Of a stretch of DNA of 64,000 bases, positions 2,085 through 53,526 are shown piece by piece. Location of the stretch: positions 6,143,501-6,207,500 of the forward strand of contig BRXU01000002.1 of assembly GCA_030267565.1 (NCBI GenBank), read 5' to 3'. Every line of letters begins with the position of its first letter. Within the stretch, counting starts at the first letter, position 1. The DNA is from Pleodorina starrii. Its lineage: Eukaryota > Chlorophyta > Chlorophyceae > Chlamydomonadales > Volvocaceae. The position numbers were made by a program, and so were the translations under genes. The notes under the pieces are model-generated. The model searched no databases. It was not told the DNA's origin and saw only the letters and a program-made list of their open reading frames with translations.

Positions 2085-2476
2085 TGTATTGAACAGGTTT
2101 TTCTCAAAACATTGTGATGCTGGGTCATACATACATACTACACAGCTCACCATGGCCATGCCAGCCACCATTCCACATGAAAGCGTGATCCAATGGTACA
2201 TTTCAGATAGTGTTTTTATGTGCAGGTCATCAGCATGGCAATGCATGGAGGATGCATACTGCAGCCATATGTGGGCCAATAATAGGTGGGATGGATATTT
2301 TGAACTGGGGTCTGCACATACAATCCCTAAACATATATAGTCATACTTAGTTATGCAGTTTTCGGAGCTGCACCCATACAGACAGGGGAAACAGGTTATT
2401 CTTGTCCTGTAACTTATGCCATTCGGCTAAACGACCAAGGAAAACATGACCACATTCTCTATGTGTAAGATATCTG

Positions 2477-2547
2477 TGCACCAGCCGAGAATCGAACTCG
2501 GGTCTGGTCCGTGGCTAGGATCTATGCTACCACTATACCACTGGTGC
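2477..2547 (-). tRNA. tRNA-Gly(GCC), degenerate edge copy (unit 1)
   Basis: The anticodon is still GCC, but the loop reads TAGCCAC instead of TTGCCAC, losing the invariant U33. A second change breaks a pair of the anticodon stem (GATCC/GGACC). It is probably non-functional. Confidence 0.7.
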
Positions 2548-2661
2548 TGAACACTGCACATGTCCACTGCACAAAAGACTTACCACCCTGTTCATACTTG
2601 CCAACAAACAATTGGCCTATGTTCATGCAAACCTGGTGTACTTGCTGATAAAGACATACAC

Positions 2662-2742
2662 TGCCCAGTGAGGGGCTCAGATAGAACTCACAACCACAAG
2701 GTTAAGAGTCTTGCCCTCTTCCACTGAATGAGCTGAACAGGC
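2662..2742 (-). pseudogene. tRNA-Lys(CTT)-like sequence, left block (first of 17)
   Basis: The minus strand reads GCCTGTTCAGCTCATTC..., with an anticodon arm CAAGA-CTCTTAA-CCTTG, so the anticodon is CTT (Lys). The anticodon loop, GGTTGTGAGTTC and terminal TGGGCA match a plant-type tRNA-Lys(CTT). The gene is abnormal: the T loop reads TTCTATC (G57 lost), about seven extra bases (TGAGCCC) separate the two halves of the T stem GTGAG/CTCAC, and the D stem GCTC/GAGG has a mismatch. Further copies with the same structure are at 4189-4269, 5716-5796, 7243-7323, 8770-8850, 10297-10377, 11824-11904, 13351-13431, 14876-14956, 16314-16394, 17841-17921, 19368-19448, 20895-20975, 22422-22502, 23949-24029, 25476-25556 and 27003-27083. 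It is most likely a tRNA pseudogene amplified with the unit. A noncanonical tRNA is the alternative. Confidence 0.72.
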
Positions 2743-3103
2743 ACATTTTCAAACCTCGTACACACAGAGACATGTATGGAGTGTGCACCAATGGATGTGT
2801 TGCACAGAAAGGGACCAGACCAGATGTAGGGCTCAGCAGTGGCACAACCAGTAGGGTGCAAAAATGTTTCCCATTCAGATATACTGGATATCCAATCATG
2901 GATGCATCTTACAAATACAAATAACCCACTACCCATGTCACTTACAAATTTCACGATCAGACATCCCTCTTCCAGCTATTCACATGTGTAGTATGGAATT
3001 CCCACTTATCATGCTCCCGAAATCCACCCAGCACCCAACATGTGAATGCCGAGTTAAGGACATGTTTTAGCTGTTGCAGACATGTGTACGTGGACACATA
3101 TTC

Positions 3104-3176
3104 CGAGCCTACCAGGGATCGAACCTGGAATCTACGGTTCCGTAGACCAGCGCTTTATCCATTATGCCATAGGCCC
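3104..3176 (-). tRNA. tRNA-Arg(ACG), degenerate edge copy (unit 1)
   Basis: The anticodon ACG is kept, but the outer pairs of the anticodon stem are altered (CTGGT/ACCGT, one mismatch). The D stem is the mismatched GCAT/AAGC form. The leftmost unit has damage in both its Arg and Gly genes. Confidence 0.75.
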
Positions 3177-4003
3177 TTATCCGAGTTCAGGCACTTGTCA
3201 AATACCAGGAACGTGTTGGATTCATTGACGAGCTTGGCACGCAGGCCCACATACAGCTCAATCATTAAGCCACAGGGGCACAGGTAGAATTTATGTGCCA
3301 TGATGTCAAGCAACAACAAACAAAGTGCACAATCTGGTCTGTTGATGCACCTTTTTGTGGGAAAACAGGGACTGTCACTTTATACCATACATGGAGCCTT
3401 AGGGTGAATTCTCCCAAGGTCCTGGGTTTCTGAGCCTTCTCCTGCGGTGTCTCTCACTCGTTCCTGTTTGGTTGACTTAAGCTGGCAAGTATGGGTGAGT
3501 GTCTTGGCAGCTCTTGTCGCCTCAAGCACAGTGCATGGCTAGCTGGCCCATTGGCTCTACTTTTCAAGAGTTTGGAACCCACTGCAAGGCATACATACAC
3601 AACAAAGGAATGTATTGAACAGGTTTTTCTCAAAACATTGTGATGCTGGGTCATACATACATACTACACAGCTCACCATGGCCATGCCAGCCACCATTCC
3701 ACATGAAAGCGTGATCCAATGGTACATTTCAGATAGTGTTTTTATGTGCAGGTCATCAGCATGGCAATGCATGGAGGATGCATACTGCAGCCATATGTGG
3801 GCCAATAATAGGTGGGATGGATATTTTGAACTGGGGTCTGCACATACAATCCCTAAACATATATAGTCATACTTAGTTATGCAGTTTTCGGAGCTGCACC
3901 CATACAGACAGGGGAAACAGGTTATTCTTGACCCTGTAACTTATGCCATTCGGCTAAACGACCAAGGAAAACATGACCACATTCTCTATGTGTAAGATAT
4001 CTG

Positions 4004-4074
4004 TGCACCAGCCGAGAATCGAACTCGGGTCTGGTCCGTGGCAAGGACCTATGCTACCACTATACCACTGGTGC
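4004..4074 (-). tRNA. tRNA-Gly(GCC), reference copy (unit 2)
   Basis: This is a 71-nt tRNA carrying glycine for GGC/GGU codons. Acceptor GCACCAG pairs with CTGGTGC. The anticodon stem is GGTCC/GGACC around TTGCCAC, and the T arm is CCGAG/CTCGG around TTCGATT. The discriminator is A, CCA is not encoded, and there is no intron. The B box GAGTTCGATTCTC is intact, so RNA polymerase III transcription is possible. A TTTT on the transcribed strand lies about 33 nt downstream. Confidence 0.96.
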
Positions 4075-4630
4075 TGAACACTGCACATGTCCACTGCACA
4101 AAAGACTTACCACCCTGTTCATACTTGCCAACAAACAATTGGCCTATGTTCATGCAAACCTGGTGTACTTGCTGATAAAGACATACACTGCCCAGTGAGG
4201 GGCTCAGATAGAACTCACAACCACAAGGTTAAGAGTCTTGCCCTCTTCCACTGAATGAGCTGAACAGGCACATTTTCAAACCTCGTACACACAGAGACAT
4301 GTATGGAGTGTGCACCAATGGATGTGTTGCACAGAAAGGGACCGGACCAGATGTAGGGCTCAGCAGTGGCACAACCAGTAGGGTGCAAAAATGTTTCCCA
4401 TTCAGATATACTGGATATCCAATCATGGATGCATCTTACAAATACAAATAACCCACTACCCATGTCACTTACAAATTTCACGATCAGACATCCCTCTTCC
4501 AGCTATTCACATGTGTAGTATGGAATTCCCACTTATCATGCTCCCGAAATCCACCCAGCACCCAACATGTGAATGCCGAGTTAAGGACATGTTTTAGCTG
4601 TTGCAGACATGTGTACGTGGACACATATTC

Positions 4631-4703
4631 CGAGCCTACCAGGGATCGAACCTGGAATCTCCGGTTCCGTAGACCGGCGCTTTATCCATTATGCCATAGG
4701 CCC
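4631..4703 (-). tRNA. tRNA-Arg(ACG) (unit 2)
   Basis: Cloverleaf intact except for an A-A mismatch in the D stem (GCAT/AAGC). Confidence 0.93.
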
Positions 4704-5530
4704 TTATCCGAGTTCAGGCACTTGTCAAATACCAGGAACGTGTTGGATTCATTGACGAGCTTGGCACGCAGGCCCACATACAGCTCAATCATTAAGCCAC
4801 AGGGGCACAGGTAGAATTTATGTGCCATGATGTCAAGCAACAACAAACAAAGTGCACAATCTGGTCTGTTGATGCACCTTTTTGTGGGAAAACAGGGACT
4901 GTCACTTTATACCATACATGGAGCCTTAGGGTGAATTCTCCCAAGGTCCTGGGTTTCTGAGCCTTCTCCTGCGGTGTCTCTCACTCGTTCCTGTTTGGTT
5001 GACTTAAGCTGGCAAGTATGGGTGAGTGTCTTGGCAGCTCTTGTCGCCTCAAGCACAGTGCATGGCTAGCTGGCCCATTGGCTCTACTTTTCAAGAGTTT
5101 GGAACCCACTGCAAGGCATACATACACAACAAAGGAATGTATTGAACAGGTTTTTCTCAAAACATTGTGATGCTGGGTCATACATACATACTACACAGCT
5201 CACCATGGCCATGCCAGCCACCATTCCACATGAAAGCGTGATCCAATGGTACATTTCAGATAGTGTTTTTATGTGCAGGTCATCAGCATGGCAATGCATG
5301 GAGGATGCAAACTGCAGCCATATGTGGGCCAATAATAGGTGGGATGGATATTTTGAACTGGGGTCTGCACATACAATCCCTAAACATATATAGTCATACT
5401 TAGTTATGCAGTTTTCGGAGCTGCACCCATACAGACAGGGGAAACAGGTTATTCTTGACCCTGTAACTTATGCCATTCGGCTAAACGACCAAGGAAAACA
5501 TGACCACATTCTCTATGTGTAAGATATCTG

Positions 5531-5601
5531 TGCACCAGCCGAGAATAGAACTGGGGTCTGGTCCGTGGCAAGGACCTATGCTACCACTATACCACTGGTG
5601 C
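5531..5601 (-). tRNA. tRNA-Gly(GCC), altered T arm (unit 3)
   Basis: The T loop reads TTCTATT (G57 to T) and one T-stem pair is lost (CCCAG/CTCGG). Both changes hit the B box, so expression is doubtful. The anticodon is intact. Confidence 0.78.
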
Positions 5602-6157
5602 TGAACACTGCACATGTCCACTGCACAAAAGACTTACCACCCTGTTCATACTTGCCAACAAACAATTGGCCTATGTTCATGCAAACCTGGTGTACTTGCT
5701 GATAAAGACATACACTGCCCAGTGAGGGGCTCAGATAGAACTCACAACCACAAGGTTAAGAGTCTTGCCCTCTTCCACTGAATGAGCTGAACAGGCACAT
5801 TTTCAAACCTCGTACACACAGAGACATGTATGGAGTGTGCACCAATGGATGTGTTGCACAGAAAGGGACCAGACCAGATGTAGGGCTCAGCAGTGGCACA
5901 ACCAGTAGGGTGCAAAAATGTTTCCCATTCAGATATACTGGATATCCAATCATGGATGCATCTTACAAATACAAATAACCCACTACCCATGTCACTTACA
6001 AATTTCACGATCAGACATCCCTCTTCCAGCTATTCACATGTGTAGTATGGAATTCCCACTTATCATGCTCCCGAAATCCACCCAGCACCCAACATGTGAA
6101 TGCCGAGTTAAGGACATGTTTTAGCTGTTGCAGACATGTGTACGTGGACACATATTC

Positions 6158-6230
6158 CGAGCCTACCAGGGATCGAACCTGGAATCTCCGGTTCCATAGA
6201 CCGGCGCTTTATCCATTATGCCATAGGCCC
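6158..6230 (-). tRNA. Arg-type tRNA with ATG (His) anticodon (unit 3)
   Basis: The body is the array tRNA-Arg, but the anticodon loop reads CTATGGA, so the anticodon is ATG, complementary to the His codon CAU, instead of ACG. Stems are otherwise as in unit 2. If charged by arginyl-tRNA synthetase it would misread His codons as Arg. Loss of C35, a known arginyl-synthetase determinant, may instead make it uncharged. Confidence 0.88.
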
Positions 6231-7057
6231 TTATCCGAGTTCAGGCACTTGTCAAATACCAGGAACGTGTTGGATTCATTGACGAGCTTGGCACGCAGGC
6301 CCACATACAGCTCAATCATTAAGCCACAGGGGCACAGGTAGAATTTATGTGCCATGATGTCAAGCAACAACAAACAAAGTGCACAATCTGGTCTGTTGAT
6401 GCACCTTTTTGTGGGAAAACAGGGACTGTCACTTTATACCATACATGGAGCCTTAGGGTGAATTCTCCCAAGGTCCTGGGTTTCTGAGCCTTCTCCTGCG
6501 GTGTCTCTCACTCGTTCCTGTTTGGTTGACTTAAGCTGGCAAGTATGGGTGAGTGTCTTGGCAGCTCTTGTCGCCTCAAGCACAGTGCATGGCTAGCTGG
6601 CCCATTGGCTCTACTTTTCAAGAGTTTGGAACCCACTGCAAGGCATACATACACAACAAAGGAATGTATTGAACAGGTTTTTCTCAAAACATTGTGATGC
6701 TGGGTCATACATACATACTACACAGCTCACCATGGCCATGCCAGCCACCATTCCACATGAAAGCGTGATCCAATGGTACATTTCAGATAGTGTTTTTATG
6801 TGCAGGTCATCAGCATGGCAATGCATGGAGGATGCAAACTGCAGCCATATGTGGGCCAATAATAGGTGGGATGGATATTTTGAACTGGGGTCTGCACATA
6901 CAATCCCTAAACATATATAGTCATACTTAGTTATGCAGTTTTCGGAGCTGCACCCATACAGACAGGGGAAACAGGTTATTCTTGACCCTGTAACTTATGC
7001 CATTCGGCTAAACGACCAAGGAAAACATGACCACATTCTCTATGTGTAAGATATCTG

Positions 7058-7128
7058 TGCACCAGCCGAGAATTGAACTGGGGTCTGGTCCGTGGCAAGG
7101 ACCTATGCTACCACTATACCACTGGTGC
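7058..7128 (-). tRNA. tRNA-Gly(GCC), altered T arm (unit 4)
   Basis: It shares the broken T-stem pair of the unit-3 copy. The T loop reads TTCAATT, a different base at position 57. Confidence 0.8.
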
Positions 7129-7684
7129 TGAACACTGCACATGTCCACTGCACAAAAGACTTACCACCCTGTTCATACTTGCCAACAAACAATTGGCCTA
7201 TGTTCATGCAAACCTGGTGTACTTGCTGATAAAGACATACACTGCCCAGTGAGGGGCTCAGATAGAACTCACAACCACAAGGTTAAGAGTCTTGCCCTCT
7301 TCCACTGAATGAGCTGAACAGGCACATTTTCAAACCTCGTACACACAGAGACATGTATGGAGTGTGCACCAATGGATGTGTTGCACAGAAAGGGACCAGA
7401 CCAGATGTAGGGCTCAGCAGTGGCACAACCAGTAGGGTGCAAAAATGTTTCCCATTCAGATATACTGGATATCCAATCATGGATGCATCTTACAAATACA
7501 AATAACCCACTACCCATGTCACTTACAAATTTCACGATCAGACATCCCTCTTCCAGCTATTCACATGTGTAGTATGGAATTCCCACTTATCATGCTCCCG
7601 AAATCCACCCAGCACCCAACATGTGAATACCGAGTACAGGACATGCTTTAGCTGTTGCAGACATGTGTACGCGGACACATATTT

Positions 7685-7757
7685 CGAGCCTACCAGGGAT
7701 CGAACCTGGAATCTCCGGTTCCATAGACCGGCGCTTTATCCATTATGCCATAGGCCC
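7685..7757 (-). tRNA. Arg-type tRNA with ATG (His) anticodon (unit 4)
   Basis: Same ACG-to-ATG anticodon change as the neighbouring unit 3, so the variant was copied with the unit. The 3' spacer has already switched to the GTACAGG type of later units. Confidence 0.88.
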
Positions 7758-8584
7758 TTATCCGAGTTCAGGCACTTGTCAAATACCAGGAACGTGTTGG
7801 ATTCATTGACGAGCTTGGCACGCAGGCCCACATACAGCTCAATCATTAAGCCACAGGGGCACAGGTAGAATTTATGTGCCATGATGTCAAGCAACAACAA
7901 ACAAAGTGCACAATCTGGTCTGTTGATGCACCTTTTTGTGGGAAAACAGGGACTGTCACTTTATACCATACATGGAGCCTTAGGGTGAATTCTCCCAAGG
8001 TCCTGGGTTTCTGAGCCTTCTCCTGCGGTGTCTCTCACTCGTTCCTGTTTGGTTGACTTAAGCTGGCAAGTATGGGTGAGTGTCTTGGCAGCTCTTGTCG
8101 CCTCAAGCACAGTGCATGGCTAGCTGGCCCATTGGCTCTACTTTTCAAGAGTTTGGAACCCACTGCAAGGCATACATACACAACAAAGGAATGTATTGAA
8201 CAGGTTTTTCTCAAAACATTGTGATGCTGGGTCATACATACATACTACACAGCTCACCATGGCCATGCCAGCCACCATTCCACATGAAAGCGTGATCCAA
8301 TGGTACATTTCAGATAGTGTTTTTATGTGCAGGTCATCAGCATGGCAATGCATGGAGGATGCATACTGCAGCCATATGTGGGCCAATAATAGGTGGGATG
8401 GATATTTTGAACTGGGGTCTGCACATACAATCCCTAAACATATATAGTCATACTTAGTTATGCAGTTTTCGGAGCTGCACCCATACAGACAGGGGAAACA
8501 GGTTATTCTTGACCCTGTAACTTATGCCATTCGGCTAAACGACCAAGGAAAACATGACCACATTCTCTATGTGTAAGATACCTG

Positions 8585-8655
8585 TGCACCAGCCGAGAAT
8601 CGAACTCGGGTCTGGTCCGTGGCAAGGACCTATGCTACCACTATACCACTGGTGC
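8585..8655 (-). tRNA. tRNA-Gly(GCC) (unit 5)
   Basis: Matches the reference copy throughout the cloverleaf. Confidence 0.95.
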
Positions 8656-9211
8656 TGAACACTGCACATGTCCACTGCACAAAAGACTTACCACCCTGTT
8701 CATACTTGCCAACAAACAATTGGCCTATGTTCATGCAAACCTGGTGTACTTGCTGATAAAGACATACACTGCCCAGTGAGGGGCTCAGATAGAACTCACA
8801 ACCACAAGGTTAAGAGTCTTGCCCTCTTCCACTGAATGAGCTGAACAGGCACATTTTCAAACCTCGTACACACAGAGACATGTATGGAGTGTGCACCAAT
8901 GGATGTGTTGCACAGAAAGGGACCAGACCAGATGTAGGGCTCAGCAGTGGCACAACCAGTAGGGTGCAAAAATGTTTCCCATTCAGATATACTGGATATC
9001 CAATCATGGATGCATCTTACAAATACAAATAACCCACTACCCATGTCACTTACAAATTTCACGATCAGACATCCCTCTTCCAGCTATTCACATGTGTAGT
9101 ATGGAATTCCCACTTATCATGCTCCCGAAATCCACCCAGCACCCAACATGTGAATACCGAGTACAGGACATGTTTCAGCTGTTGCAGACATGTGTACGCG
9201 GACACATATTT

Positions 9212-9284
9212 CGAGCCTACCAGGGATCGAACCTGGAATCTCCGGTTCCGTAGACCGGCGCTTTATCCATTAAGCCATAGGCCC
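9212..9284 (-). tRNA. tRNA-Arg(ACG), reference copy (unit 5)
   Basis: This is a 73-nt tRNA for CGN arginine codons. Acceptor GGGCCTA pairs with TAGGCTC (one G-U). The D stem GCTT/AAGC is fully paired, the anticodon stem is CCGGT/ACCGG around CTACGGA, and the T arm is CCAGG/CCTGG around TTCGATC. The discriminator is G, with no intron and no encoded CCA. A34 would be edited to inosine in eukaryotes. No TTTT appears on the transcribed strand within about 45 nt downstream, which is unusual for RNA polymerase III. Confidence 0.96.
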
Positions 9285-10111
9285 TTATCCGAGTTTAGAA
9301 ACTTGTCAAACTCCAGGAACGTGTTGGATTCATTGACGAGCTTGGCACGCAGGCCCACATACAGCTCAATCATTAAGCCACAGGGGCACAGGTAGAATTT
9401 ATGTGCCATGATGTCAAGCAACAACAAACAAAGTGCACAATCTGGTCTGTTGATGCACCTTTTTGTGGGAAAACAGGGACTGTCACTTTATACCATACAT
9501 GGAGCCTTAGGGTGAATTCTCCCAAGGTCCTGGGTTTCTGAGCCTTCTCCTGCGGTGTCTCTCACTCGTTCCTGTTTGGTTGACTTAAGCTGGCAAGTAT
9601 GGGTGAGTGTCTTGGCAGCTCTTGTCGCCTCAAGCACAGTGCATGGCTAGCTGGCCCATTGGCTCTACTTTTCAAGAGTTTGGAACCCACTGCAAGGCAT
9701 ACATACACAACAAAGGAATGTATTGAACAGGTTTTTCTCAAAACATTGTGATGCTGGGTCATACATACATACTACACAGCTCACCATGGCCATGCCAGCC
9801 ACAATTCCACATGAAAGTGTGATCCAATGGTACATTTCAGATAGTGTTTTTATGTGCAGGTCATCAGCATGGCAATGCATGGAGGATGCATACTGCAGCC
9901 ATATGTGGGCCAATAATAGGTGGGATGGATATTTTGAACTGGGGTCTGCACATACAATCCCTAAACATATATAGTCATACTTAGTTATGCAGTTTTCGGA
10001 GCTGCACCCATACAGACAGGGGAAACAGGTTATTCTTGACCCTGTAACTTATGCCATTCGGCTAAACGACCAAGGAAAACATGACCACATTCTCTATGTG
10101 TAAGATACCTG

Positions 10112-10182
10112 TGCACCAGCCGAGAATCGAACTCGGGTCTGGTCCGTGGCAAGGACCTATGCTACCACTATACCACTGGTGC
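10112..10182 (-). tRNA. tRNA-Gly(GCC) (unit 6)
   Basis: Matches the reference copy; all stems are paired. Confidence 0.95.
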
Positions 10183-10738
10183 TGAACACTGCACATGTCC
10201 ACTGCACAAAAGACTTACCACCCTGTTCATACTTGCCAACAAACAATTGGCCTATGTTCATGCAAACCTAGTGTACTTGCTGATAAAGACATACACTGCC
10301 CAGTGAGGGGCTCAGATAGAACTCACAACCACAAGGTTAAGAGTCTTGCCCTCTTCCACTGAATGAGCTGAACAGGCACATTTTCAAACCTCGTACACAC
10401 AGAGACATGTATGGAGTGTGCACCAATGGATGTGTTGCACAGAAAGGGACCAGACCAGATGTAGGGCTCAGCAGTGGCACAACCAGTAGGGTGCAAAAAT
10501 GTTTCCCATTCAGATATACTGGATATCCAATCATGGATGCATCTTACAAATACAAATAACCCACTACCCATGTCACTTACAAATTTCACGATCAGACATC
10601 CCTCTTCCAGCTATTCACATGTGTAGTATGGAATTCCCACTTATCATGCTCCCGAAATCCACCCAGCACCCAACATGTGAATACCGAGTACAGGACATGT
10701 TTCAGCTGTTGCAGACATGTGTACGCGGACACATATTC

Positions 10739-10811
10739 CGAGCCTACCAGGGATCGGACCTGGAATCTCCGGTTCCGTAGACCGGCGCTTTATCCATTAA
10801 GCCATAGGCCC
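10739..10811 (-). tRNA. tRNA-Arg(ACG), T-loop variant (unit 6)
   Basis: The T loop is TCCGATC: the base that becomes pseudouridine 55 is C. This alters both tertiary structure and the B box. Shared with units 7 and 8. Confidence 0.88.
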
Positions 10812-11638
10812 TTATCCGAGTTCAGGCACTTGTTAAACTCCAGGAACGTGTTGGATTCATTGACGAGCTTGGCACGCAGGCCCACATACAGCTCAATCAT
10901 TAAGCCACAGGGGCACAGGTAGAATTTATGTGCCATGATGTCAAGCAACAACAAACAAAGTGCACAATCTGGTCTGTTGATGCACCTTTTTGTGGGAAAA
11001 CAGGGACTGTCACTTTATACCATACATGGAGCCTTAGGGTGAATTCTCCCAAGGTCCTGGGTTTCTGAGCCTTCTCCTGCGGTGTCTCTCACTCGTTCCT
11101 GTTTGGTTGACTTAAGCTGGCAAGTATGGGTGAGTGTCTTGGCAGCTCTTGTCGCCTCAAGCACAGTGCATGGCTAGCTGGCCCATTGGCTCTACTTTTC
11201 AAGAGTTTGGAACCCACTGCAAGGCATACATACACAACAAAGGAATGTATTGAACAGGTTTTTCTCAAAACATTGTGATGCTGGGTCATACATACATACT
11301 ACACAGCTCACCATGGCCATGCCAGCCACAATTCCACATGAAAGTGTGATCCAATGGTACATTTCAGATAGTGTTTTTATGTGCAGGTCATCAGCATGGC
11401 AATGCATGGAGGATGCATACTGCAGCCATATGTGGGCCAATAATAGGTGGGATGGATATTTTGAACTGGGGTCTGCACATACAATCCCTAAACATATATA
11501 GTCATACTTAGTTATGCAGTTTTCGGAGCTGCACCCATACAGACAGGGGAAACAGGTTATTCTTGACCCTGTAACTTATGCCATTCGGCTAAACGACCAA
11601 GGAAAACATGACCACATTCTCTATGTGTAAGATACCTG

Positions 11639-11709
11639 TGCACCAGCCGAGAATCGAACTCGGGTCTGGTCCGTGGCAAGGACCTATGCTACCACTATAC
11701 CACTGGTGC
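11639..11709 (-). tRNA. tRNA-Gly(GCC) (unit 7)
   Basis: Matches the reference copy; all stems are paired. Confidence 0.95.
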
Positions 11710-12265
11710 TGAACACTGCACATGTCCACTGCACAAAAGACTTACCACCCTGTTCATACTTGCCAACAAACAATTGGCCTATGTTCATGCAAACCTAGTG
11801 TACTTGCTGATAAAGACATACACTGCCCAGTGAGGGGCTCAGATAGAACTCACAACCACAAGGTTAAGAGTCTTGCCCTCTTCCACTGAATGAGCTGAAC
11901 AGGCACATTTTCAAACCTCGTACACACAGAGACATGTATGGAGTGTGCACCAATGGATGTGTTGCACAGAAAGGGACCAGACCAGATGTAGGGCTCAGCA
12001 GTGGCACAACCAGTAGGGTGCAAAAATGTTTCCCATTCAGATATACTGGATATCCAATCATGGATGCATCTTACAAATACAAATAACCCACTACCCATGT
12101 CACTTACAAATTTCACGATCAGACATCCCTCTTCCAGCTATTCACATGTGTAGTATGGAATTCCCACTTATCATGCTCCCGAAATCCACCCAGCACCCAA
12201 CATGTGAATACCGAGTACAGGACATGTTTCAGCTGTTGCAGACATGTGTACGCGGACACATATTC

Positions 12266-12338
12266 CGAGCCTACCAGGGATCGGACCTGGAATCTCCGGT
12301 TCCGTAGACCGGCGCTTTATCCATTAAGCCATAGGCCC
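12266..12338 (-). tRNA. tRNA-Arg(ACG), T-loop variant (unit 7)
   Basis: Carries the TCCGATC T loop of unit 6. Confidence 0.88.
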
Positions 12339-13165: not shown

Positions 13166-13236
13166 TGCACCAGCCGAGAATCGAACTCGGGTCTGGTCCG
13201 TGGCAAGGACCTATGCTACCACTATACCACTGGTGC
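13166..13236 (-). tRNA. tRNA-Gly(GCC) (unit 8)
   Basis: Matches the reference copy; all stems are paired. Confidence 0.95.
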
Positions 13237-32020: not shown

Positions 32021-32042
32021 TCATGGGGCGGATTGCTGAAGC

Positions 32043-42676: not shown

Positions 42677-42748
42677 CGAGCCTACCAGGGATCGAACCTG
42701 GAATCCCGGTTCCGTAGACCGGCGCTTTATCCATTAAGCCATAGGCCC
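42677..42748 (-). tRNA. tRNA-Arg(ACG), 72-nt form (unit 21)
   Basis: Carries the variable-loop deletion of unit 20. Confidence 0.92.
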
Positions 42749-43575
42749 TTATCCGAGTTCAGGCACTTGTTAAACACGAGGAACGTGTTGGATTCATTGA
42801 CGAGCTTGGCACGCAGGCCCACATACAGCTCAATCATTAAGCCACAGGGGCACAGGTAGAATTTATGTGCCATGATGTCAAGCAACAACAAACAAAGTGC
42901 ACAATCTGGTCTGTTGATGCACCTTTTTGTGGGAAAACAGGGACTGTCACTTTATACCATACATGGAGCCTTAGGGTGAATTCTCCCAAGGTCCTGGGTT
43001 TCTGAGCCTTCTCCTGCGGTGTCTCTCACTCTTTCCTGTTTGGTTGACTTAAGCTGGCAAGTATGGGTGAGTGTCTTGGCAGCTCTTGTCGCCTCAAGCA
43101 CAGTGCATGGCTAGCTGGCCCATTGGCTCTACTTTTCAAGAGTTTGGAACCCACTGCAAGGCATACATACACAACAAAGGAATGTATTGAACAGGTTTTT
43201 CTCAAAACATTGTGATGCTGGGTCATACATACATACTACACAGCTCACCATGGCCATGCCAGCCACCATTCCACATGAAAGCGTGATCCAATGGTACATT
43301 TCAGATAGTGTTTTTATGTGCAGGTCATCAGCATGGCAATGCATGGAGGATGCATACTGCAGCCATATGTGGGCCAATAATAGGTGGGATGGATATTTTG
43401 AACTGGGGTCTGCACATACAATCCCTAAACATATATAGTCATACTTAGTTATGCAGTTTTCGGAGCTGCACCCATACAGACAGGGGAAACAGGTTATTCT
43501 TGACCCTGTAACTTATGCCATTCGGCTAAACGACCAAGGAAAACATGATCACATTCTCTATGTGTAAGATTTCTG

Positions 43576-43646
43576 TGCACCAGCCGAGAATCGAACTCGG
43601 GTCTGGTCCGTGGCAAGGACCTATGCTACCACTATACCACTGGTGC
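43576..43646 (-). tRNA. tRNA-Gly(GCC) (unit 22)
   Basis: Intact gene with a distinctive downstream flank; member C of the higher-order repeat. Confidence 0.95.
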
Positions 43647-44202
43647 TGAACACTGCACATGTCCACTGCACAAAAGACTTACCACCCTGTTCATACTTGC
43701 CAACAAACAATTGGCCTATGTTCATGCAAACCTGGTGTACTTGCTGATAAAGACATACACTGCCCAGTGAGGGGCTCAGATAGAACTCACAACCACAAGG
43801 TTAAGAGTCTTGCCCTCTTCCACTGAATGAGCTGAACAGGCACATTTTCAAACCTCGTACACACAGAGACATGTATGGAGTGTGCACCAATGGATGTGTT
43901 GCACAGAAAGGGACCAGACCAGATGTAGGGCTCAGCAGTGGCACAACCAGTAGGGTGCAAAAATGTTTCCCATTCAGATATACTGGATATCCAATCATGG
44001 ATGCATCTTACAAATACAAATAACCCACTACCCATGTCACTTACAAATTTCACGATCAGACATCCCTCTTCCAGCTATTCACATGTGTAGTATGGAATTC
44101 CCACTTATCATGCTCCCGAAATCCACCCAGCACCCAACATGTGAATGCCGAGTAAAGGACATGTTTTAGCTGTTGCAGACATGTGTACGTAGACATATAT
44201 TC

Positions 44203-44275
44203 CGAGCCTACCAGGGATCGAACCTGGAATCTCCGGTTCCGTAGACCGGCGCTTTATCCATTAAGCCATAGGCCC
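44203..44275 (-). tRNA. tRNA-Arg(ACG) (unit 22)
   Basis: Full-length intact gene with a diverged 3' flank (GTAGACATATATTCC on plus). Confidence 0.95.
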
Positions 44276-45102
44276 TTAGCCGAGTTCAGGCACTTGTTAT
44301 ATACCAGGAACGTGTTGGATTCATTGACGAGCTTGGCACGCAGGCCCACATACAGCTCAATCATTAAGCCACAGGGGCACAGGTAGAATTTATGTGCCAT
44401 GATGTCAAGCAACAACAAACAAAGTGCACAATCTGGTCTGTTGATGCACCTTTTTGTGGGAAAACAGGGACTGTCACTTTATACCATACATGGAGCCTTA
44501 GGGTGAATTCTCCCAAGGTCCTGGGTTTCTGAGCCTTCTCCTGCGGTGTCTCTCACTCGTTCCTGTTTGGTTGACTTAAGCTGGCAAGTATGGGTGAGTG
44601 TCTTGGCAGCTCTTGTCGCCTCAAGCACAGTGCATGGCTAGCTGGCCCATTGGCTCTACTTTTCAAGAGTTTGGAACCCACTGCAAGGCATACATACACA
44701 ACAAAGGAATGTATTGAACAGGTTTTTCTCAAAACATTGTGATGCTGGGTCATACATACATACTACACAGCTCACCATGGCCATGCCAGCCACCATTCCA
44801 CATGAAAGCGTGATCCAATGGTACATTTCAGATAGTGTTTTTATGTGCAGGTCATCAGCATGGCAATGCATGGAGGATGCATACTGCAGCCATATGTGGG
44901 CCAATAATAGGTGGGATGGATATTTTGAACTGGGGTCTGCACATACAATCCCTAAACATATATAGTCATACTTAGTTATGCAGTTTTCGGAGCTGCACCC
45001 ATACAGACAGGGGAAACAGGTTATTCTTGACCCTGTAACTTATGCCATTCGGCTAAACGACCAAGGAAAACATGACCACATTCTCTATGTGTAAGATATC
45101 TG

Positions 45103-45173
45103 TGCACCAGCCGAGAATCGAACTCGGGTCTGGTCCGTGGCAAGGACCTATGCTACCACTATACCACTGGTGC
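45103..45173 (-). tRNA. tRNA-Gly(GCC) (unit 23)
   Basis: Intact; second copy of member A. Confidence 0.95.
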
Positions 45174-45729
45174 TGAACACTGCACATGTCCACTGTACAA
45201 AAGACTTACCACCCTGTTCATACTTGCCAACAAACAATTGGCCTATGTTCATGCAAACCTGGTGTACTTGCTGATAAAGACATACACTGCCCAGTGAGGG
45301 GCTCAGATAGAACTCACAACCACAAGGTTAAGAGTCTTGCCCTCTTCCACTGAATGAGCTGAACAGGCACATTTTCAAACCTTGTACACACAGAGACATG
45401 TATGGAGTGTGCACCAATGGATGTGTTGCACAGAAAGGGACCAGACCAGATGTAGGGCTCAGCAGTGGCACAACCAGTAGGGTGCAAAAATGTTTCCCAT
45501 TCAGATATACTGGATATCCAATCATGGATGCATCTTACAAATACAAATAACCCACTACCCATGTCACTTACAAATTTCACGATCAGACATCCCTCTTCCA
45601 GCTATTCACATGTGTAGTATGGAATTCCCACTTATCATGCTCCCGAAATCCACCCAGCACCCAACATGTGAATGCCGAGTACAGGACATGTTTTAGCTGT
45701 TGCAGACATGTGTACGTGGACACATATTC

Positions 45730-45801
45730 CGAGCCTACCAGGGATCGAACCTGGAATCCCGGTTCCGTAGACCGGCGCTTTATCCATTAAGCCATAGGCC
45801 C
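45730..45801 (-). tRNA. tRNA-Arg(ACG), 72-nt form (unit 23)
   Basis: Carries the variable-loop deletion of unit 20. Confidence 0.92.
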
Positions 45802-46628
45802 TTATCCGAGTTCAGGCACTTGTTAAACACGAGGAACGTGTTGGATTCATTGACGAGCTTGGCACGCAGGCCCACATACAGCTCAATCATTAAGCCACAG
45901 GGGCACAGGTAGAATTTATGTGCCATGATGTCAAGCAACAACAAACAAAGTGCACAATCTGGTCTGTTGATGCACCTTTTTGTGGGAAAACAGGGACTGT
46001 CACTTTATACCATACATGGAGCCTTAGGGTGAATTCTCCCAAGGTCCTGGGTTTCTGAGCCTTCTCCTGCGGTGTCTCTCACTCGTTCCTGTTTGGTTGA
46101 CTTAAGCTGGCAAGTATGGGTGAGTGTCTTGGCAGCTCTTGTCGCCTCAAGCACAGTGCATGGCTAGCTGGCCCATTGGCTCTACTTTTCAAGAGTTTGG
46201 AACCCACTGCAAGGCATACATACACAACAAAGGAATGTATTGAACAGGTTTTTCTCAAAACATTGTGATGCTGGGTCATACATACATACTACACAGCTCA
46301 CCATGGCCATGCCAGCCACCATTCCACATGAAAGCGTGATCCAATGGTACATTTCAGATAGTGTTTTTATGTGCAGGTCATCAGCATGGCAATGCATGGA
46401 GGATGCATACTGCAGCCATATGTGGGCCAATAATAGGTGGGATGGATATTTTGAACTGGGGTCTGCACATACAATCCCTAAACATATATAGTCATACTTA
46501 GTTATGCAGTTTTCGGAGCTGCACCCATACAGACAGGGGAAACAGGTTATTCTTGACCCTGTAACTTATGCCATTCGGCTAAACGACCAAGGAAAACATG
46601 ACCACATTCTCTATGTGTAAGATATCTG

Positions 46629-46699
46629 TGCACCAGCCGAGAATCGAACTCGGGTCTGATCCGTGGCAAGGACCTATGCTACCACTATACCACTGGTGC
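46629..46699 (-). tRNA. tRNA-Gly(GCC), G-U variant (unit 24)
   Basis: Second copy of member B, with the GGATC stem variant. Confidence 0.94.
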
Positions 46700-47255
46700 T
46701 GAACACTGCACATGTCCACTGTATAAAAGACTTACCACCCTGTTCATACTTGCTAACAAACAATTGGCCTATGTTCATGCAAACCTGGTGTACTTGCTGA
46801 TAAAGACATACACTGCCCAGTGAGGGGCTCAGATAGAACTCACAACCACAAGGTTAAGAGTCTTGCCCTCTTCCACTGAATGAGCTGAACAGGCACATTT
46901 TCAAACCTCGTACACACAGAGACATGTATGGAGTGTGCACCAATGGATGTGTTGCACAGAAAGGGACCAGACCAGATGTAGGGCTCAGCAGTGGCACAAC
47001 CAGTAGGGTGCAAAAATGTTTCCCATTCAGATATACTGGATATCCAATCATGGATGCATCTTACAAATACAAATAACCCACTACCCATGTCACTTACAAA
47101 TTTCACGATCAGACATCCCTCTTCCAGCTATTCACATGTGTAGTATGGAATTCCCACTTATCATGCTCCCGAAATCCACCCAGCACCCAACATGTGAATG
47201 CCGAGTACAGGACATGTTTTAGCTGTTGCAGACATGTGTACGTGGACACATATTC

Positions 47256-47327
47256 CGAGCCTACCAGGGATCGAACCTGGAATCCCGGTTCCGTAGACCG
47301 GCGCTTTATCCATTAAGCCATAGGCCC
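47256..47327 (-). tRNA. tRNA-Arg(ACG), 72-nt form (unit 24)
   Basis: Carries the variable-loop deletion of unit 20. Confidence 0.92.
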
Positions 47328-48154
47328 TTATCCGAGTTCAGGCACTTGTTAAACACGAGGAACGTGTTGGATTCATTGACGAGCTTGGCACGCAGGCCCA
47401 CATACAGCTCAATCATTAAGCCACAGGGGCACAGGTAGAATTTATGTGCCATGATGTCAAGCAACAACAAACAAAGTGCACAATCTGGTCTGTTGATGCA
47501 CCTTTTTGTGGGAAAACAGGGACTGTCACTTTATACCATACATGGAGCCTTAGGGTGAATTCTCCCAAGGTCCTGGGTTTCTGAGCCTTCTCCTGCGGTG
47601 TCTCTCACTCTTTCCTGTTTGGTTGACTTAAGCTGGCAAGTATGGGTGAGTGTCTTGGCAGCTCTTGTCGCCTCAAGCACAGTGCATGGCTAGCTGGCCC
47701 ATTGGCTCTACTTTTCAAGAGTTTGGAACCCACTGCAAGGCATACATACACAACAAAGGAATGTATTGAACAGGTTTTTCTCAAAACATTGTGATGCTGG
47801 GTCATACATACATACTACACAGCTCACCATGGCCATGCCAGCCACCATTCCACATGAAAGCGTGATCCAATGGTACATTTCAGATAGTGTTTTTATGTGC
47901 AGGTCATCAGCATGGCAATGCATGGAGGATGCATACTGCAGCCATATGTGGGCCAATAATAGGTGGGATGGATATTTTGAACTGGGGTCTGCACATACAA
48001 TCCCTAAACATATATAGTCATACTTAGTTATGCAGTTTTCGGAGCTGCACCCATACAGACAGGGGAAACAGGTTATTCTTGACCCTGTAACTTATGCCAT
48101 TCGGCTAAACGACCAAGGAAAACATGATCACATTCTCTATGTGTAAGATTTCTG

Positions 48155-48225
48155 TGCACCAGCCGAGAATCGAACTCGGGTCTGGTCCGTGGCAAGGACC
48201 TATGCTACCACTATACCACTGGTGC
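48155..48225 (-). tRNA. tRNA-Gly(GCC) (unit 25)
   Basis: Intact; second copy of member C. Confidence 0.95.
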
Positions 48226-48781
48226 TGAACACTGCACATGTCCACTGCACAAAAGACTTACCACCCTGTTCATACTTGCCAACAAACAATTGGCCTATGT
48301 TCATGCAAACCTGGTGTACTTGCTGATAAAGACATACACTGCCCAGTGAGGGGCTCAGATAGAACTCACAACCACAAGGTTAAGAGTCTTGCCCTCTTCC
48401 ACTGAATGAGCTGAACAGGCACATTTTCAAACCTCGTACACACAGAGACATGTATGGAGTGTGCACCAATGGATGTGTTGCACAGAAAGGGACCAGACCA
48501 GATGTAGGGCTCAGCAGTGGCACAACCAGTAGGGTGCAAAAATGTTTCCCATTCAGATATACTGGATATCCAATCATGGATGCATCTTACAAATACAAAT
48601 AACCCACTACCCATGTCACTTACAAATTTCACGATCAGACATCCCTCTTCCAGCTATTCACATGTGTAGTATGGAATTCCCACTTATCATGCTCCCGAAA
48701 TCCACCCAGCACCCAACATGTGAATGCCGAGTAAAGGACATGTTTTAGCTGTTGCAGACATGTGTACGTAGAAATATATTC

Positions 48782-48854
48782 CGAGCCTACCAGGGATCGA
48801 ACCTGGAATCTCCGGTTCCGTAGACCGGCGCTTTATCCATTAAGCCATAGGCCC
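48782..48854 (-). tRNA. tRNA-Arg(ACG) (unit 25)
   Basis: Full-length intact gene; flank related to unit 22. Confidence 0.95.
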
Positions 48855-49681
48855 TTAGCCGAGTTCAGGCACTTGTTAAATACCAGGAACGTGTTGGATT
48901 CATTGACGAGCTTGGCACGCAGGCCCACATACAGCTCAATCATTAAGCCACAGGGGCACAGGTAGAATTTATGTGCCATGATGTCAAGCAACAACAAACA
49001 AAGTGCACAATCTGGTCTGTTGATGCACCTTTTTGTGGGAAAACAGGGACTGTCACTTTATACCATACATGGAGCCTTAGGGTGAATTCTCCCAAGGTCC
49101 TGGGTTTCTGAGCCTTCTCCTGCGGTGTCTCTCACTCGTTCCTGTTTGGTTGACTTAAGCTGGCAAGTATGGGTGAGTGTCTTGGCAGCTCTTGTCGCCT
49201 CAAGCACAGTGCATGGCTAGCTGGCCCATTGGCTCTACTTTTCAAGAGTTTGGAACCCACTGCAAGGCATACATACACAACAAAGGAATGTATTGAACAG
49301 GTTTTTCTCAAAACATTGTGATGCTGGGTCATACATACATACTACACAGCTCACCATGGCCATGCCAGCCACCATTCCACATGAAAGCGTGATCCAATGG
49401 TACATTTCAGATAGTGTTTTTATGTGCAGGTCATCAGCATGGCAATGCATGGAGGATGCATACTGCAGCCATATGTGGGCCAATAATAGGTGGGATGGAT
49501 ATTTTGAACTGGGGTCTGCACATACAATCCCTAAACATATATAGTCATACTTAGTTATGCAGTTTTCGGAGCTGCACCCATACAGACAGGGGAAACAGGT
49601 TATTCTTGACCCTGTAACTTATGCCATTCGGCTAAACGACCAAGGAAAACATGACCACATTCTCTATGTGTAAGATATCTG

Positions 49682-49752
49682 TGCACCAGCCGAGAATCGA
49701 ACTCGGGTCTGGTCCGTGGCAAGGACCTTTGCTACCACTATACCACTGGTGC
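49682..49752 (-). tRNA. tRNA-Gly(GCC) (unit 26)
   Basis: One A replaces T between the D and anticodon stems. All stems are paired. Confidence 0.94.
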
Positions 49753-50308
49753 TGAACACTGCACATGTCCACTGCACAAAAGACTTACCACCCTGTTCAT
49801 ACTTGCCAACAAACAATTGGCCTATGTTCATGCAAACCTGGTGTACTTGCTGATAAAGACATACACTGCCCAGTGAGGGGCTCAGATAGAACTCACAACC
49901 ACAAGGTTAAGAGTCTTGCCCTCTTCCACTGAATGAGCTGAACAGGCACATTTTCAAACCTCGTACACACAGAGACATGTATGGAGTGTGCACCAATGGA
50001 TGTGTTGCACAGAAAGGGACCAGACCAGATGTAGGGCTCAGCAGTGGCACAACCAGAAGGGTGCAAAAATGTTTCCCATTCAGATATACTGGATATCCAA
50101 TCATGGATGCATCTTACAAATACAAATACCCCACTACCCATGTCACTTACAAATTTCACGATCAGACATCCCTCTTCCAGCTATTCACATGTGTAGTATG
50201 GAATTCCCACTTATCATGCTCCCGAAATCCACCCAGCACCCAACATGTGAATGCCGAGTTAAGGACATGTTTTAGCTGTTGCAGACATGTGTACGTGGAC
50301 ACATATTC

Positions 50309-50381
50309 CGAGCCTACCAGGGATCGAACCTGGAATCTCCGGTTCCGTAGACCGGCGCTTTATCCATTAAGCCATAGGCCC
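50309..50381 (-). tRNA. tRNA-Arg(ACG) (unit 26)
   Basis: Matches the reference copy. Confidence 0.96.
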
Positions 50382-51208
50382 TTATCCGAGTTCAGGCACT
50401 CGTTAAACACCAGGAACGTGTTGGATTCATTGACGAGCTTGGCACGCAGGCCCACATACAGCTCAATCATTAAGCCACAGGGGCACAGGTAGAATTTATG
50501 TGCCATGATGTCAAGCAACAACAAACAAAGTGCACAATCTGGTCTGTTGATGCACCTTTTTGTGGGAAAACAGGGACTGTCACTTTATACCATACATGGA
50601 GCCTTAGGGTGAATTCTCCCAAGGTCCTGGGTTTCTGAGCCTTCTCCTGCGGTGTCTCTCACTCGTTCCTGTTTGGTTGACTTAAGCTGGCAAGTATGGG
50701 TGAGTGTCTTGGCAGCTCTTGTCGCCTCAAGCACAGTGCATGGCTAGCTGGCCCATTGGCTCTACTTTTCAAGAGTTTGGAACCCACTGCAAGGCATACA
50801 TACACAACAAAGGAATGTATTGAACAGGTTTTTCTCAAAACATTGTGATGCTGGGTCATACATACATACTACACAGCTCACCATGGCCATGCCAGCCACC
50901 ATTCCACATGAAAGCGTGATCCAATGGTACATTTCAGATAGTGTTTTTATGTGCAGGTCATCAGCATGGCAATGCATGGAGGATGCATACTGCAGCCATA
51001 TGTGGGCCAATAATAGGTGGGATGGATATTTTGAACTGGGGTCTGCACATACAATCCCTAAACATATATAGTCATACTTAGTTATGCAGTTTTCGGAGCT
51101 GCACCCATACAGACAGGGGAAACAGGTTATTCTTGACCCTGTAACTTATGCCATTCGGCTAAACGACCAAGGAAAACATGACCACATTCTCTTTGTGTAA
51201 GATATCTG

Positions 51209-51279
51209 TGCACCAGCCGAGAATCGAACTCGGGTCTGGTCCGTGGCAAGGACCTTTGCTACCACTATACCACTGGTGC
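51209..51279 (-). tRNA. tRNA-Gly(GCC) (unit 27)
   Basis: Same variant as unit 26, consistent with a recent duplication of that unit. Confidence 0.94.
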
Positions 51280-51835
51280 TGAACACTGCACATGTCCACT
51301 GCACAAAAGACTTACCACCCTGTTCATACTTGCCAACAAACAATTGGCCTATGTTCATGCAAACCTGGTGTACTTGCTGATAAAGACATACACTGCCCAG
51401 TGAGGGGCTCAGATAGAACTCACAACCACAAGGTTAAGAGTCTTGCCCTCTTCCACTGAATGAGCTGAACAGGCACATTTTCAAACCTCGTACACACAGA
51501 GACATGTATGGAGTGTGCACCAATGGATGTGTTGCACAGAAAGGGACCAGACCAGATGTAGGGCTCAGCAGTGGCACAACCAGAAGGGTGCAAAAATGTT
51601 TCCCATTCAGATATACTGGATATCCAATCATGGATGCATCTTACAAATACAAATACCCCACTACCCATGTCACTTACAAATTTCACGATCAGACATCCCT
51701 CTTCCAGCTATTCACATGTGTAGTATGGAATTCCCACTTATCATGCTCCCGAAATCCACCCAGCACCCAACATGTGAATGCCGAGTTAAGGACATGTTTT
51801 AGCTGTTGCAGACATGTGTACGTGGACACATATTC

Positions 51836-51908
51836 CGAGCCTACCAGGGATCGAACCTGGAATCTCCGGTTCCGTAGACCGGCGCTTTATCCATTAAGCC
51901 ATAGGCCC
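51836..51908 (-). tRNA. tRNA-Arg(ACG) (unit 27)
   Basis: Matches the reference copy. Confidence 0.96.
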
Positions 51909-52735
51909 TTATCCGAGTTCAGGCACTCGTTAAACACCAGGAACGTGTTGGATTCATTGACGAGCTTGGCACGCAGGCCCACATACAGCTCAATCATTAA
52001 GCCACAGGGGCACAGGTAGAATTTATGTGCCATGATGTCAAGCAACAACAAACAAAGTGCACAATCTGGTCTGTTGATGCACCTTTTTGTGGGAAAACAG
52101 GGACTGTCACTTTATACCATACATGGAGCCTTAGGGTGAATTCTCCCAAGGTCGTGGGTTTCTGAGCCTTCTCCTGCGGTGTCTCTCACTCGTTCCTGTT
52201 TGGTTGACTTAAGCTGGCAAGTATGGGTGAGTGTCTTGGCAGCTCTTGTCGCCTCAAGCACAGTGCATGGCTAGCTGGCCCATTGGCTCTACTTTTCAAG
52301 AGTTTGGAACCCACTGCAAGGCATACATACACAACAAAGGAATGTATTGAACAGGTTTTTCTCAAAACATTGTGATGCTGGGTCATACATACATACTACA
52401 CAGCTCACCATGGCCATGCCAGCCACCATTCCACATGAAAGCGTGATCCAATGGTACATTTCAGATAGTGTTTTTATGTGCAGGTCATCAGCATGGCAAT
52501 GCATGGAGGATGCATACTGCAGCCATATGTGGGCCAATAATAGGTGGGATGGATATTTTGAACTGGGGTCTGCACATACAATCCCTAAACATATATAGTC
52601 ATACTTAGTTATGCAGTTTTCGGAGCTGCACCCATACAGACAGGGGAAACAGGTTATTCTTGACCCTGTAACTTATGCCATTCGGCTAAACGACCAAGGA
52701 AAACATGACCACATTCTCTATGTATAAGAAATCTG

Positions 52736-52806
52736 TGCACCAGCCGAGAATTGAACTCGGGTCTGGTCCGTGGCAAGAACCTATGCTACCACTATACCAC
52801 TGGTGC
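52736..52806 (-). tRNA. tRNA-Gly(GCC), right-edge variant (unit 28)
   Basis: The T loop is TTCAATT (position 57 changed) and the anticodon stem is GGTTC/GGACC with one G-U pair. Probably still folds. Confidence 0.88.
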
Positions 52807-53362
52807 TGAACACTGCACATGTCCACTGCACAAAAGACTTACCACCCTGTTCATACTTGCCAACAAACAATTGGCCTATGTTCATGCAAACCTGGTGTAC
52901 TTGCTGATAAAGACATACACTGCCCAGTGAGGGGCTCAGATAGAACTCACAACCACAAGGTTAAGAGTCTTGCCCTCTTCCACTGAATGAGCTGAACAGG
53001 CACATTTTCAAACCTCGTACACACAGAGACATGTATGGAGTGTGCACCAATGGATGTGTTGCACAGAAAGGGACCAGACCAGATGTAGGGCTCAACAGTG
53101 GCACAACCAGTAGGGTGCAAAAATGTTTCCCATTCAGATATACTGGATATCCAATCATGGATGCATCTTACAAATACAAATAACCCACTACCCATGTCAC
53201 TTACAAATTTCACGATCAGACATCCCTCTTCCAGCTATTCACATGTGTAGTATGGAATTCCCACTTATCATGCTCCCGAAATCCACCCAGCACCCAACAT
53301 GTGAATGCCGAGTACAGGACATGTTTTAGCTGTTGCAGACATGTGTACGTAGACATATATTC

Positions 53363-53435
53363 CGAGCATGCCAGGGATCGAACCTGGAATCTCCGATTCC
53401 GTAGACCGGCGCTTTATCCATTAAGCCATAGGCCC
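53363..53435 (-). tRNA. tRNA-Arg(ACG), right-edge degenerate copy (unit 28)
   Basis: The acceptor 3' strand reads CATGCTC, with two mismatches to GGGCCTA. The anticodon stem has a G-U pair. The Helitron junction lies about 90 bp upstream in transcription terms. Confidence 0.8.
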
Positions 53436-53526
53436 TTATCCGAGTTCAGGCACTTGTTAAATACCAGGAACGTGTTGGATTCATTGACGAGCTTGGCACG
53501 CAGGCCCACATACAGCTCAATCATTA

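What the first reader, a model, noticed from the sequence alone, without database searches (positions are those of the whole stretch)
2085..53526. 28-unit tandem array of a tRNA-Arg / Lys-like / Gly cluster
Seen: 28 copies each of tRNA-Arg(ACG), a Lys(CTT)-like sequence and tRNA-Gly(GCC) in a 1527-bp head-to-tail unit, nearly identical along 42 kb. Known: tandem tRNA arrays are described in Entamoeba, Xenopus and Arabidopsis, but this gene combination and unit are not familiar to me. Inference: it is a tRNA dosage locus or a tRNA-bearing satellite, possibly with structural roles (Pol III/TFIIIC sites as boundaries).
Basis: partly seen in the sequence, partly recalled or inferred. Interest (0 to 1): 0.75.

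Follow-up and report, generated by a model that had tools for sequence, protein, structure and literature searches.

The report
Giant tRNA array with variable genes
A green alga carries a roughly 230-kilobase head-to-tail array of about a hundred copies of a unit with two tRNA genes, and, unlike ribosomal DNA, the genes and their edges are the most variable part of each copy, which suggests mutation caused by transcription and copies that no longer matter one by one.

Summary
The window carries 28 units spaced ~1,527 bp (blocks 2085-27413 and 36536-53526, split by a 9.1-kb transposon-like insert) with 28 tRNA-Gly(GCC) and 28 tRNA-Arg bodies (26 ACG, 2 ATG), all on the minus strand. The Lys-like stretch is a relic: present 28 of 28 times, accepted 0 times by ARAGORN or Rfam. 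The array runs on: C2:6,118,913 to at least 6,352,539, with 201 tRNA genes up to 6,350,500. The assembly matches Pleodorina starrii NIES-4479. Two more multi-kilobase arrays were sampled (Lys-CTT; Trp-CCA/Glu-CTC). In 81 full units the tRNA genes plus short flanks are the most variable part (93/385 versus 63/1142 sites, odds 5.5) while the relic is quiet (3/75); the other arrays show this more weakly and differently. The 4 Arg and 5 Gly dispersed genes fetched, chosen by exact core, equal the array's master allele. Best reading: an array kept by unequal exchange, transcribed by Pol III, mutated by transcription, with individually dispensable copies. Transcription is inferred, not shown.

The parts
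2085..27413 (-). Array block 1: 15 full units, one unit with a ~94-bp deletion, and the first 988 bp of a unit split by an insert
   Evidence: BLAST of the unit on the window
36536..53526 (-). Array block 2: the last 542 bp of the split unit, 10 full units, and a last unit cut at unit position 1183
2085..3611 (-). Reference unit used here; most neighbouring units start 1527 bp apart
   Evidence: 81 full units in C2:6118913-6347500
2476..2547 (-). tRNA-Gly(GCC) of the reference unit; this copy is below Rfam's cut-off, the other 27 in the window pass
2671..2745 (-). Lys(CTT)-like relic: conserved between units, no A or B box, not accepted as a tRNA
3104..3176 (-). tRNA-Arg(ACG) of the reference unit
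2396..2587 (-). High-variation zone around tRNA-Gly (40 bp upstream to 80 bp downstream), first unit as example
3024..3216 (-). High-variation zone around tRNA-Arg, first unit as example
27414..36535 (.). 9.1-kb insert with terminal inverted repeats starting CACTCGGGGAACGGCCCAGTCAT and a 3-bp target duplication GCT; CACTA-like DNA transposon (superfamily name recalled)
1..2084 (.). Right part of a related ~8.2-kb element (C2:6137397-6145584) inserted at the unit boundary
53527..64000 (.). Left part of an 18.5-kb compound insert (to C2:6215565) with Helitron-like ORFs and a TAGGGGC satellite

Best explanation
A nuclear tandem array of Pol III tRNA genes in the volvocine alga Pleodorina starrii. 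Units (Arg-ACG and Gly-GCC genes plus a dead Lys relic) multiply and are homogenised locally by unequal exchange between neighbours (inferred from a clear distance pattern). Most copies still have both internal promoter boxes (shown by pattern match) and are transcribed (inferred). Transcription raises the mutation rate from about 40 bp upstream to 60-90 bp past each gene (the pattern of variation is shown; the cause is inferred). Because there are about a hundred copies plus dispersed genes with the master sequence, selection on any one copy is weak, so genes and short flanks become the most variable part of the unit. Net effect: a large, self-eroding supply of two tRNAs, refreshed by the spread of good units (inferred).
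For: Array and genes. Local exchange: divergence 0.50% between successive full units, 1.17% at lag 60; shared variants in the zone cluster (mean gap 3.7 versus 18.6 expected, 0 of 2000 permutations); units with inserts re-amplified at periods of about 2.73, 2.44 and 3.90 kb. Variation: genes 37/145 variable sites versus 119/1382 elsewhere, odds 3.6; zone 93/385 versus 63/1142, odds 5.5, p 3e-22; non-CpG sites alone 81/351 versus 57/1122; singletons 44 in 421 hot versus 25 in 1106 cold sites. Internal control: Lys relic 3/75. Other arrays: Lys zone 11/194 versus 17/1231; Trp/Glu zone 31/386 versus 37/1221 after excluding one block. Relaxed selection: genes as variable as their zone flanks (37/145 versus 56/240, p 0.63), while the 4 Arg and 5 Gly dispersed genes fetched equal the master allele in full.
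Against: No expression data. The spectrum lacks a clear strand signature: in broad flanks G>A 38 events at 71 G sites versus C>T 23 at 59 C sites on the tRNA strand. In the Lys array the gene (1/74) and 40 bp upstream (0/40) are quiet and only the 3' side is hot, 18/156. The zone and the hot/cold split were drawn after seeing the first array's profile. The Trp/Glu result depends on excluding unit positions 1351-1520, where one unit carries foreign sequence (52 of 63 variant letters); with it kept, 31/386 versus 93/1391, p 0.37. Smaller clusters of variable sites at unit 81-140 and 1401-1440 lie far from any gene. The dispersed genes were chosen by exact core matches from capped listings, which favours identity.
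Confidence: 0.6

Rival explanations
1. The genes look variable because bound Pol III factors block gene conversion there, so old variants persist; the mutation rate itself is normal.
For: Shared variants are also in excess in the hot regions (68 in 421 hot versus 28 in 1106 cold sites).
Against: Singletons, likely the youngest class, are also in excess (44 in 421 versus 25 in 1106 sites). Shared variants in the zone are locally clustered much as those outside are (mean gap 3.7 and 2.6, against 18.6 and 21.3 expected), so exchange does act on the zone.
Confidence: 0.15
2. A silenced tRNA-bearing satellite: heterochromatic, not transcribed, expanding as selfish tandem DNA and transposon sink, with the hot zones having another cause (replication-fork pausing or poor repair at factor-bound sites).
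For: Many inserts in the array, some with transposon-like ORFs or ends; dispersed master copies could suffice; the Arabidopsis SYY cluster is silenced in most tissues (PMC12308677, abstract).
Against: Footprint centred on intact genes and absent at the relic; promoter-box patterns kept in 75-78 of 81 full units; the first 24 nt of the genes vary less (6/48 versus 31/97, p 0.014).
Confidence: 0.2
3. Assembly or polishing artefact: copy number or variants made by assembly merging or short-read polishing of repeats.
For: The assembly merged two assemblies and was polished with Illumina reads (PMC10256686, passages). C3 begins inside the Trp/Glu array and C59 holds more of it, so arrays may break contigs.
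Against: High-fidelity PacBio reads were used. Inserts and re-amplified insert-bearing units anchor the array; variants cluster in space and extend into flanks; polishing from the dispersed genes fetched would restore the master allele, not diversify it.
Confidence: 0.05

Closest known systems
Entamoeba tRNA gene arrays (Tawari et al., PMC2652664; abstract and two sections read)
   Same: Head-to-tail units with up to several tRNA genes; several different arrays in one genome; homogenised units; transposons nearby; function open.
   Different: Entamoeba histolytica: almost all tRNA genes, over 10% of the genome, units mostly uniform, no clear evidence of pseudogene copies. Here: dispersed genes coexist, genes and their flanks are the most variable part, and a relic gene sits in every unit of the window.
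Arabidopsis SYY (Ser/Tyr/Tyr) cluster (PMC12308677; start of abstract and passages)
   Same: Tandem tRNA units; clustered Tyr copies hold more sequence variants (1 major, 9 minors) than dispersed ones (1 major, 2 minors).
   Different: 27 units over almost 40 kb (PMC10701932 passage), against about 100 units over about 234 kb here; silencing not testable here.
Arabidopsis tRNA-Cys cluster (PMC10701932; passages and one section)
   Same: Tandem units, high gene variability with stem mispairs, an accompanying pseudogene; annotated Helitrons overlap it, though the paper's own checks found no reliable Helitron over the genes.
   Different: Four to six units; the parts I read do not compare genes with spacer.
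Elevated mutation at tRNA genes (Thornlow et al. 2018; content recalled, only the reference was seen, paper not held)
   Same: Excess variation in and around tRNA genes, attributed to transcription.
   Different: As recalled: gene bodies held by selection, flanks hot. Here bodies of the Arg/Gly array copies are as variable as their flanks.

Membership tests
Tandem tRNA gene array (Entamoeba type) | Head-to-tail units each with complete tRNA genes in one orientation | tested here: met
   201 of 201 on the minus strand in C2:6103501-6350500
Tandem tRNA gene array (Entamoeba type) | Several distinct arrays in the genome | tested here: met
   Lys-CTT (34 of 44 cores), Trp-CCA (56 of 59) and Glu-CTC (53 of 59) in arrays; a small Arg-TCG run
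Tandem tRNA gene array (Entamoeba type) | Almost all tRNA genes are arrayed | tested here: inconclusive
   Dispersed copies exist for each of the five cores tested; the whole tRNA set could not be listed (63 of 4674 candidates scored)
Tandem tRNA gene array (Entamoeba type) | Short tandem repeats between genes (E. histolytica and E. dispar only) | tested here: not met
   Tandem Repeats Finder at score 50 lists none inside the two blocks
Silenced plant tRNA cluster (SYY type) | Transcriptional silencing in most cells | not testable with these tools
   no expression or chromatin data
tRNA-derived SINE | Dispersed copies sharing more than the tRNA (body and tail; recalled) | tested here: not met
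   The 9 dispersed genes fetched match the unit only over the tRNA plus at most 5 bases
Transcription-associated mutagenesis at tRNA genes | Excess variation in gene and flanks | tested here: met
   for the Arg/Gly array; two other arrays, with the caveats
Transcription-associated mutagenesis at tRNA genes | Strand-asymmetric spectrum (recalled) | tested here: inconclusive
   no excess of C>T over G>A on the tRNA strand

The most novel reading that the evidence does not exclude
In this alga, tRNA arrays are self-mutating tandem genes: Pol III transcription is the main mutagen, genes and their edges become the least conserved part of the Arg/Gly repeat (the reverse of rDNA), dead genes such as the Lys relic go quiet, and only unequal exchange refreshes working units, while the cell tolerates variant tRNAs, including anticodon changes (3 ATG and 1 TCG among 101 Arg bodies; one gene at a Glu position reading CTT).
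Probability: 0.4. Interest if true: 0.75.

Novelty: new variant of a known kind. Interest (0 to 1): 0.6.

Why it matters
It extends Entamoeba-like tRNA arrays to a multicellular green alga, and offers a natural experiment: many near-identical units, with an internal dead-gene control, that record where mutations fall around Pol III genes. It gives an assembled, insert-anchored case for asking why some genomes array tRNA genes and how redundancy, transcription and unequal exchange balance.

Tried and rejected
A three-gene unit (rejected: the Lys copy is a relic). SINE origin (rejected for the 9 dispersed genes fetched). CpG decay as cause of the hot zones (rejected: non-CpG sites show the same excess). 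Base composition (rejected: GC sites 26.2% versus 6.3%, AT sites 22.2% versus 4.8%). Polishing from the dispersed genes fetched (disfavoured). A second cmscan, of 12 of the 18 flanking loci, gave 117 tRNA hits over the cut-off. An 18S rRNA search for the species did not complete; the species rests on assembly size and contig number (95 contigs, 136.1 Mb) and a P. starrii protein 93% identical over 100% of the query. Chromosome context (centromere, telomere) and presence of the array in other strains were not tested. Literature: all 10 searches used.

Rows dropped: of 133 BLAST pieces of the unit, the 81 with at least 1500 aligned query bases were used for variation. In the Lys array 17 of 18 pieces, from 25 kb of an array whose cores span about 85 kb. 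In the Trp/Glu array 17 units or part units from 30 kb of C3; the C59 stretch was not aligned; columns with fewer than 8 letters were skipped.

Limit found on checking: the place lists stop at 100 rows (of 115 and 118) and the Gly list omits at least one exact array copy, C2:6351865. So the lists of dispersed genes may be incomplete; after all copies seen in fetched letters, 10 Arg and 12 Gly matches remain unplaced.
Full report
What is there. Window 2085-53526 holds 28 units spaced about 1,527 bp in two blocks. ARAGORN lists 56 tRNA genes, all on the minus strand: 28 Gly(GCC), 26 Arg(ACG) and 2 Arg bodies with anticodon ATG. Rfam's tRNA model passes 55 of 56. The Lys(CTT)-like sequence is in all 28 units. 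It aligns to the tRNA-Lys of this genome's Lys array, with extra bases inside the T arm and other changes, lacks my A- and B-box patterns (recalled consensus) in 81 of 81 full units, and is not accepted as a tRNA in the window. It is a relic.

How far it goes. The window is C2:6,143,501-6,207,500 of a 136-Mb assembly with 95 contigs. Unit pieces run from C2:6,118,913 to the end of the contiguous stretch, 6,347,500, and cover 154,848 of those 228,588 bp; the rest is inserts. 201 tRNA genes lie in the stretch to 6,350,500, every one on the minus strand, and one further Gly/Arg pair ends at 6,352,539; beyond that I did not read. Core patterns count 115 Arg copies genome-wide at up to 1 mismatch; 92 exact ones are listed, 88 in the array and 4 dispersed. 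For Gly, 118 at up to 2 mismatches; 72 exact ones are listed, 67 in the array and 5 dispersed. The lists stop at 100 rows and the Gly list omits at least one exact array copy (C2:6351865), so other dispersed copies may exist; 10 Arg and 12 Gly matches remain unplaced.

Which organism. A Helitron-like protein in the right flank (window 58233-59984) is 93% identical over its whole length to a Pleodorina starrii protein. The bisexual P. starrii strain NIES-4479 was published with 95 contigs and 136.1 Mb (PMC10256686, passages), which fits the assembly here. The main text of that paper shows 0 occurrences of tRNA (term search).

Not alone. Other arrays in the same genome: Lys-CTT, unit ~1,425 bp, C2:6.651-6.736 Mb, 34 of 44 cores; Trp-CCA/Glu-CTC, unit ~1,777 bp, on C3 from its first bases to about 125 kb and on C59, 56 of 59 and 53 of 59 cores; and a short Arg-TCG run with a 162-bp unit, five copies in 1 kb. 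Of the 10 other Lys cores, one is the relic of a Gly/Arg unit at C2:6352057 and 9 are elsewhere. The Trp/Glu unit also seems to hold a tRNA-like remnant (read by eye, not tested).

Where the variation lies. In 81 full units (of 133 BLAST pieces), the Gly gene has 26.4% variable sites, Arg 24.7%, the spacer 9.8% and the relic 4.0% (3/75), gaps counted. Counting substitutions only, genes are 37/145 against 119/1382 elsewhere. A zone from 40 bp upstream to 80 bp past each gene has 93/385 against 63/1142 outside, odds 5.5, p 3e-22; the excess holds at non-CpG sites and at both AT and GC sites; sliding the zone around the unit reaches the observed count only for 54 of 1527 shifts (the zero shift included), all within 40 bases of the true place. 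The p-values treat sites as independent and the zone was drawn after seeing the profile, so they overstate certainty. Singletons show the same excess (with a hot/cold split also drawn after the profile). Shared variants sit in neighbouring units far more than chance, as expected of inherited differences, not random errors.

Other arrays as replication. With the zone unchanged, the Lys array gives 11/194 against 17/1231 and the Trp/Glu array 31/386 against 37/1221 after leaving out unit positions 1351-1520. That block is mostly foreign sequence in one unit (52 of 63 variant letters); with it kept the Trp/Glu test is null, 31/386 against 93/1391, p 0.37. In the Lys array the gene itself is nearly invariant (1/74) and the heat is downstream, 18/156. 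So the pattern recurs in weaker form and with a different shape.

Selection. Within the zone the Arg/Gly genes are as variable as their flanks (37/145 against 56/240, p 0.63), although the first 24 nt vary less (6/48 against 31/97, p 0.014) and both promoter-box patterns survive in 78 of 81 Gly and 75 of 81 Arg copies. Only 12 of 81 units carry both master alleles and 29 carry neither. The 4 Arg and 5 Gly dispersed genes fetched are identical over the tRNA to the master alleles (chosen by exact core). Selection on single array copies therefore looks weak, while the master sequence is kept in the genome.

Mechanism. Local unequal exchange explains the gradient of divergence with distance (0.50% at lag 1, 1.17% at lag 60) and the re-amplified insert-bearing units. 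Transcription-associated mutation best explains a footprint that follows the intact genes and skips the relic; this is inference, since I had no expression data and the mutation spectrum shows no clear strand bias. Rivals are blocked gene conversion, a silent satellite with fork pausing, and artefact. That Arg-ACG, Gly-GCC, Lys-CTT and Glu-CTC read codons favoured in GC-rich volvocine genomes is recalled, not tested.

Compared with the known. Tandem tRNA arrays are known in Entamoeba (PMC2652664; abstract and two sections) and plants (PMC12308677, PMC10701932, PMC11700998; passages and one section). Clustered genes with damaging variants are known in Arabidopsis. Volvox carteri is reported with 1,051 tRNA genes including pseudogenes against 256 in Chlamydomonas (PMC11700998 passage), and the two with 41% and 56% of tRNA genes in clusters (PMC2888827 passage), so arrays in volvocine algae would not be out of place. 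What I did not find described in the listings is a tandem array in which the tRNA genes are measured as the most variable part of the unit; these searches cover open-licence papers only and I opened few of the hits.

Change on checking. The count of dispersed genes is now stated as a lower bound.

Noticed in passing
window 27414-36535 and 1-2084: Two related elements with inverted ends starting CACTCGGG, TCATGAC-type subterminal repeats and 3-bp target duplications (GCT; TGT), inserted in array units.
   Followed up: partly
window 53527-64000: ORFs matching Helitron_like_N (PF14214), AAA domains (PF13245; PF13604 just under its cut-off) and DUF6570 (PF20209) inside an 18.5-kb insert in the array.
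   Followed up: partly
window 63395-64000, on to C2:6215045: About 8.15 kb with 804 exact TAGGGGC strings, G-rich and telomere-like, inside the array.
   Followed up: no
L022-L023, C2:6307694-6316516; L016-L017, C2:6248353-6255311: Units with inserts re-amplified as higher-order repeats of about 2.44 and 2.73 kb.
   Followed up: partly
L035:1049-1122: A tRNA at a Glu position of the Trp/Glu array with anticodon CTT.
   Followed up: no
L035:1 and L029: C3 starts inside the Trp/Glu array and C59 carries more of it in the opposite orientation; perhaps a contig break within one array, or an array near a chromosome end as proposed for Entamoeba.
   Followed up: no
window 2165-2224 and 3485-3524 (unit positions 81-140 and 1401-1440): Smaller clusters of variable unit sites far from any tRNA gene, unexplained.
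   Followed up: no
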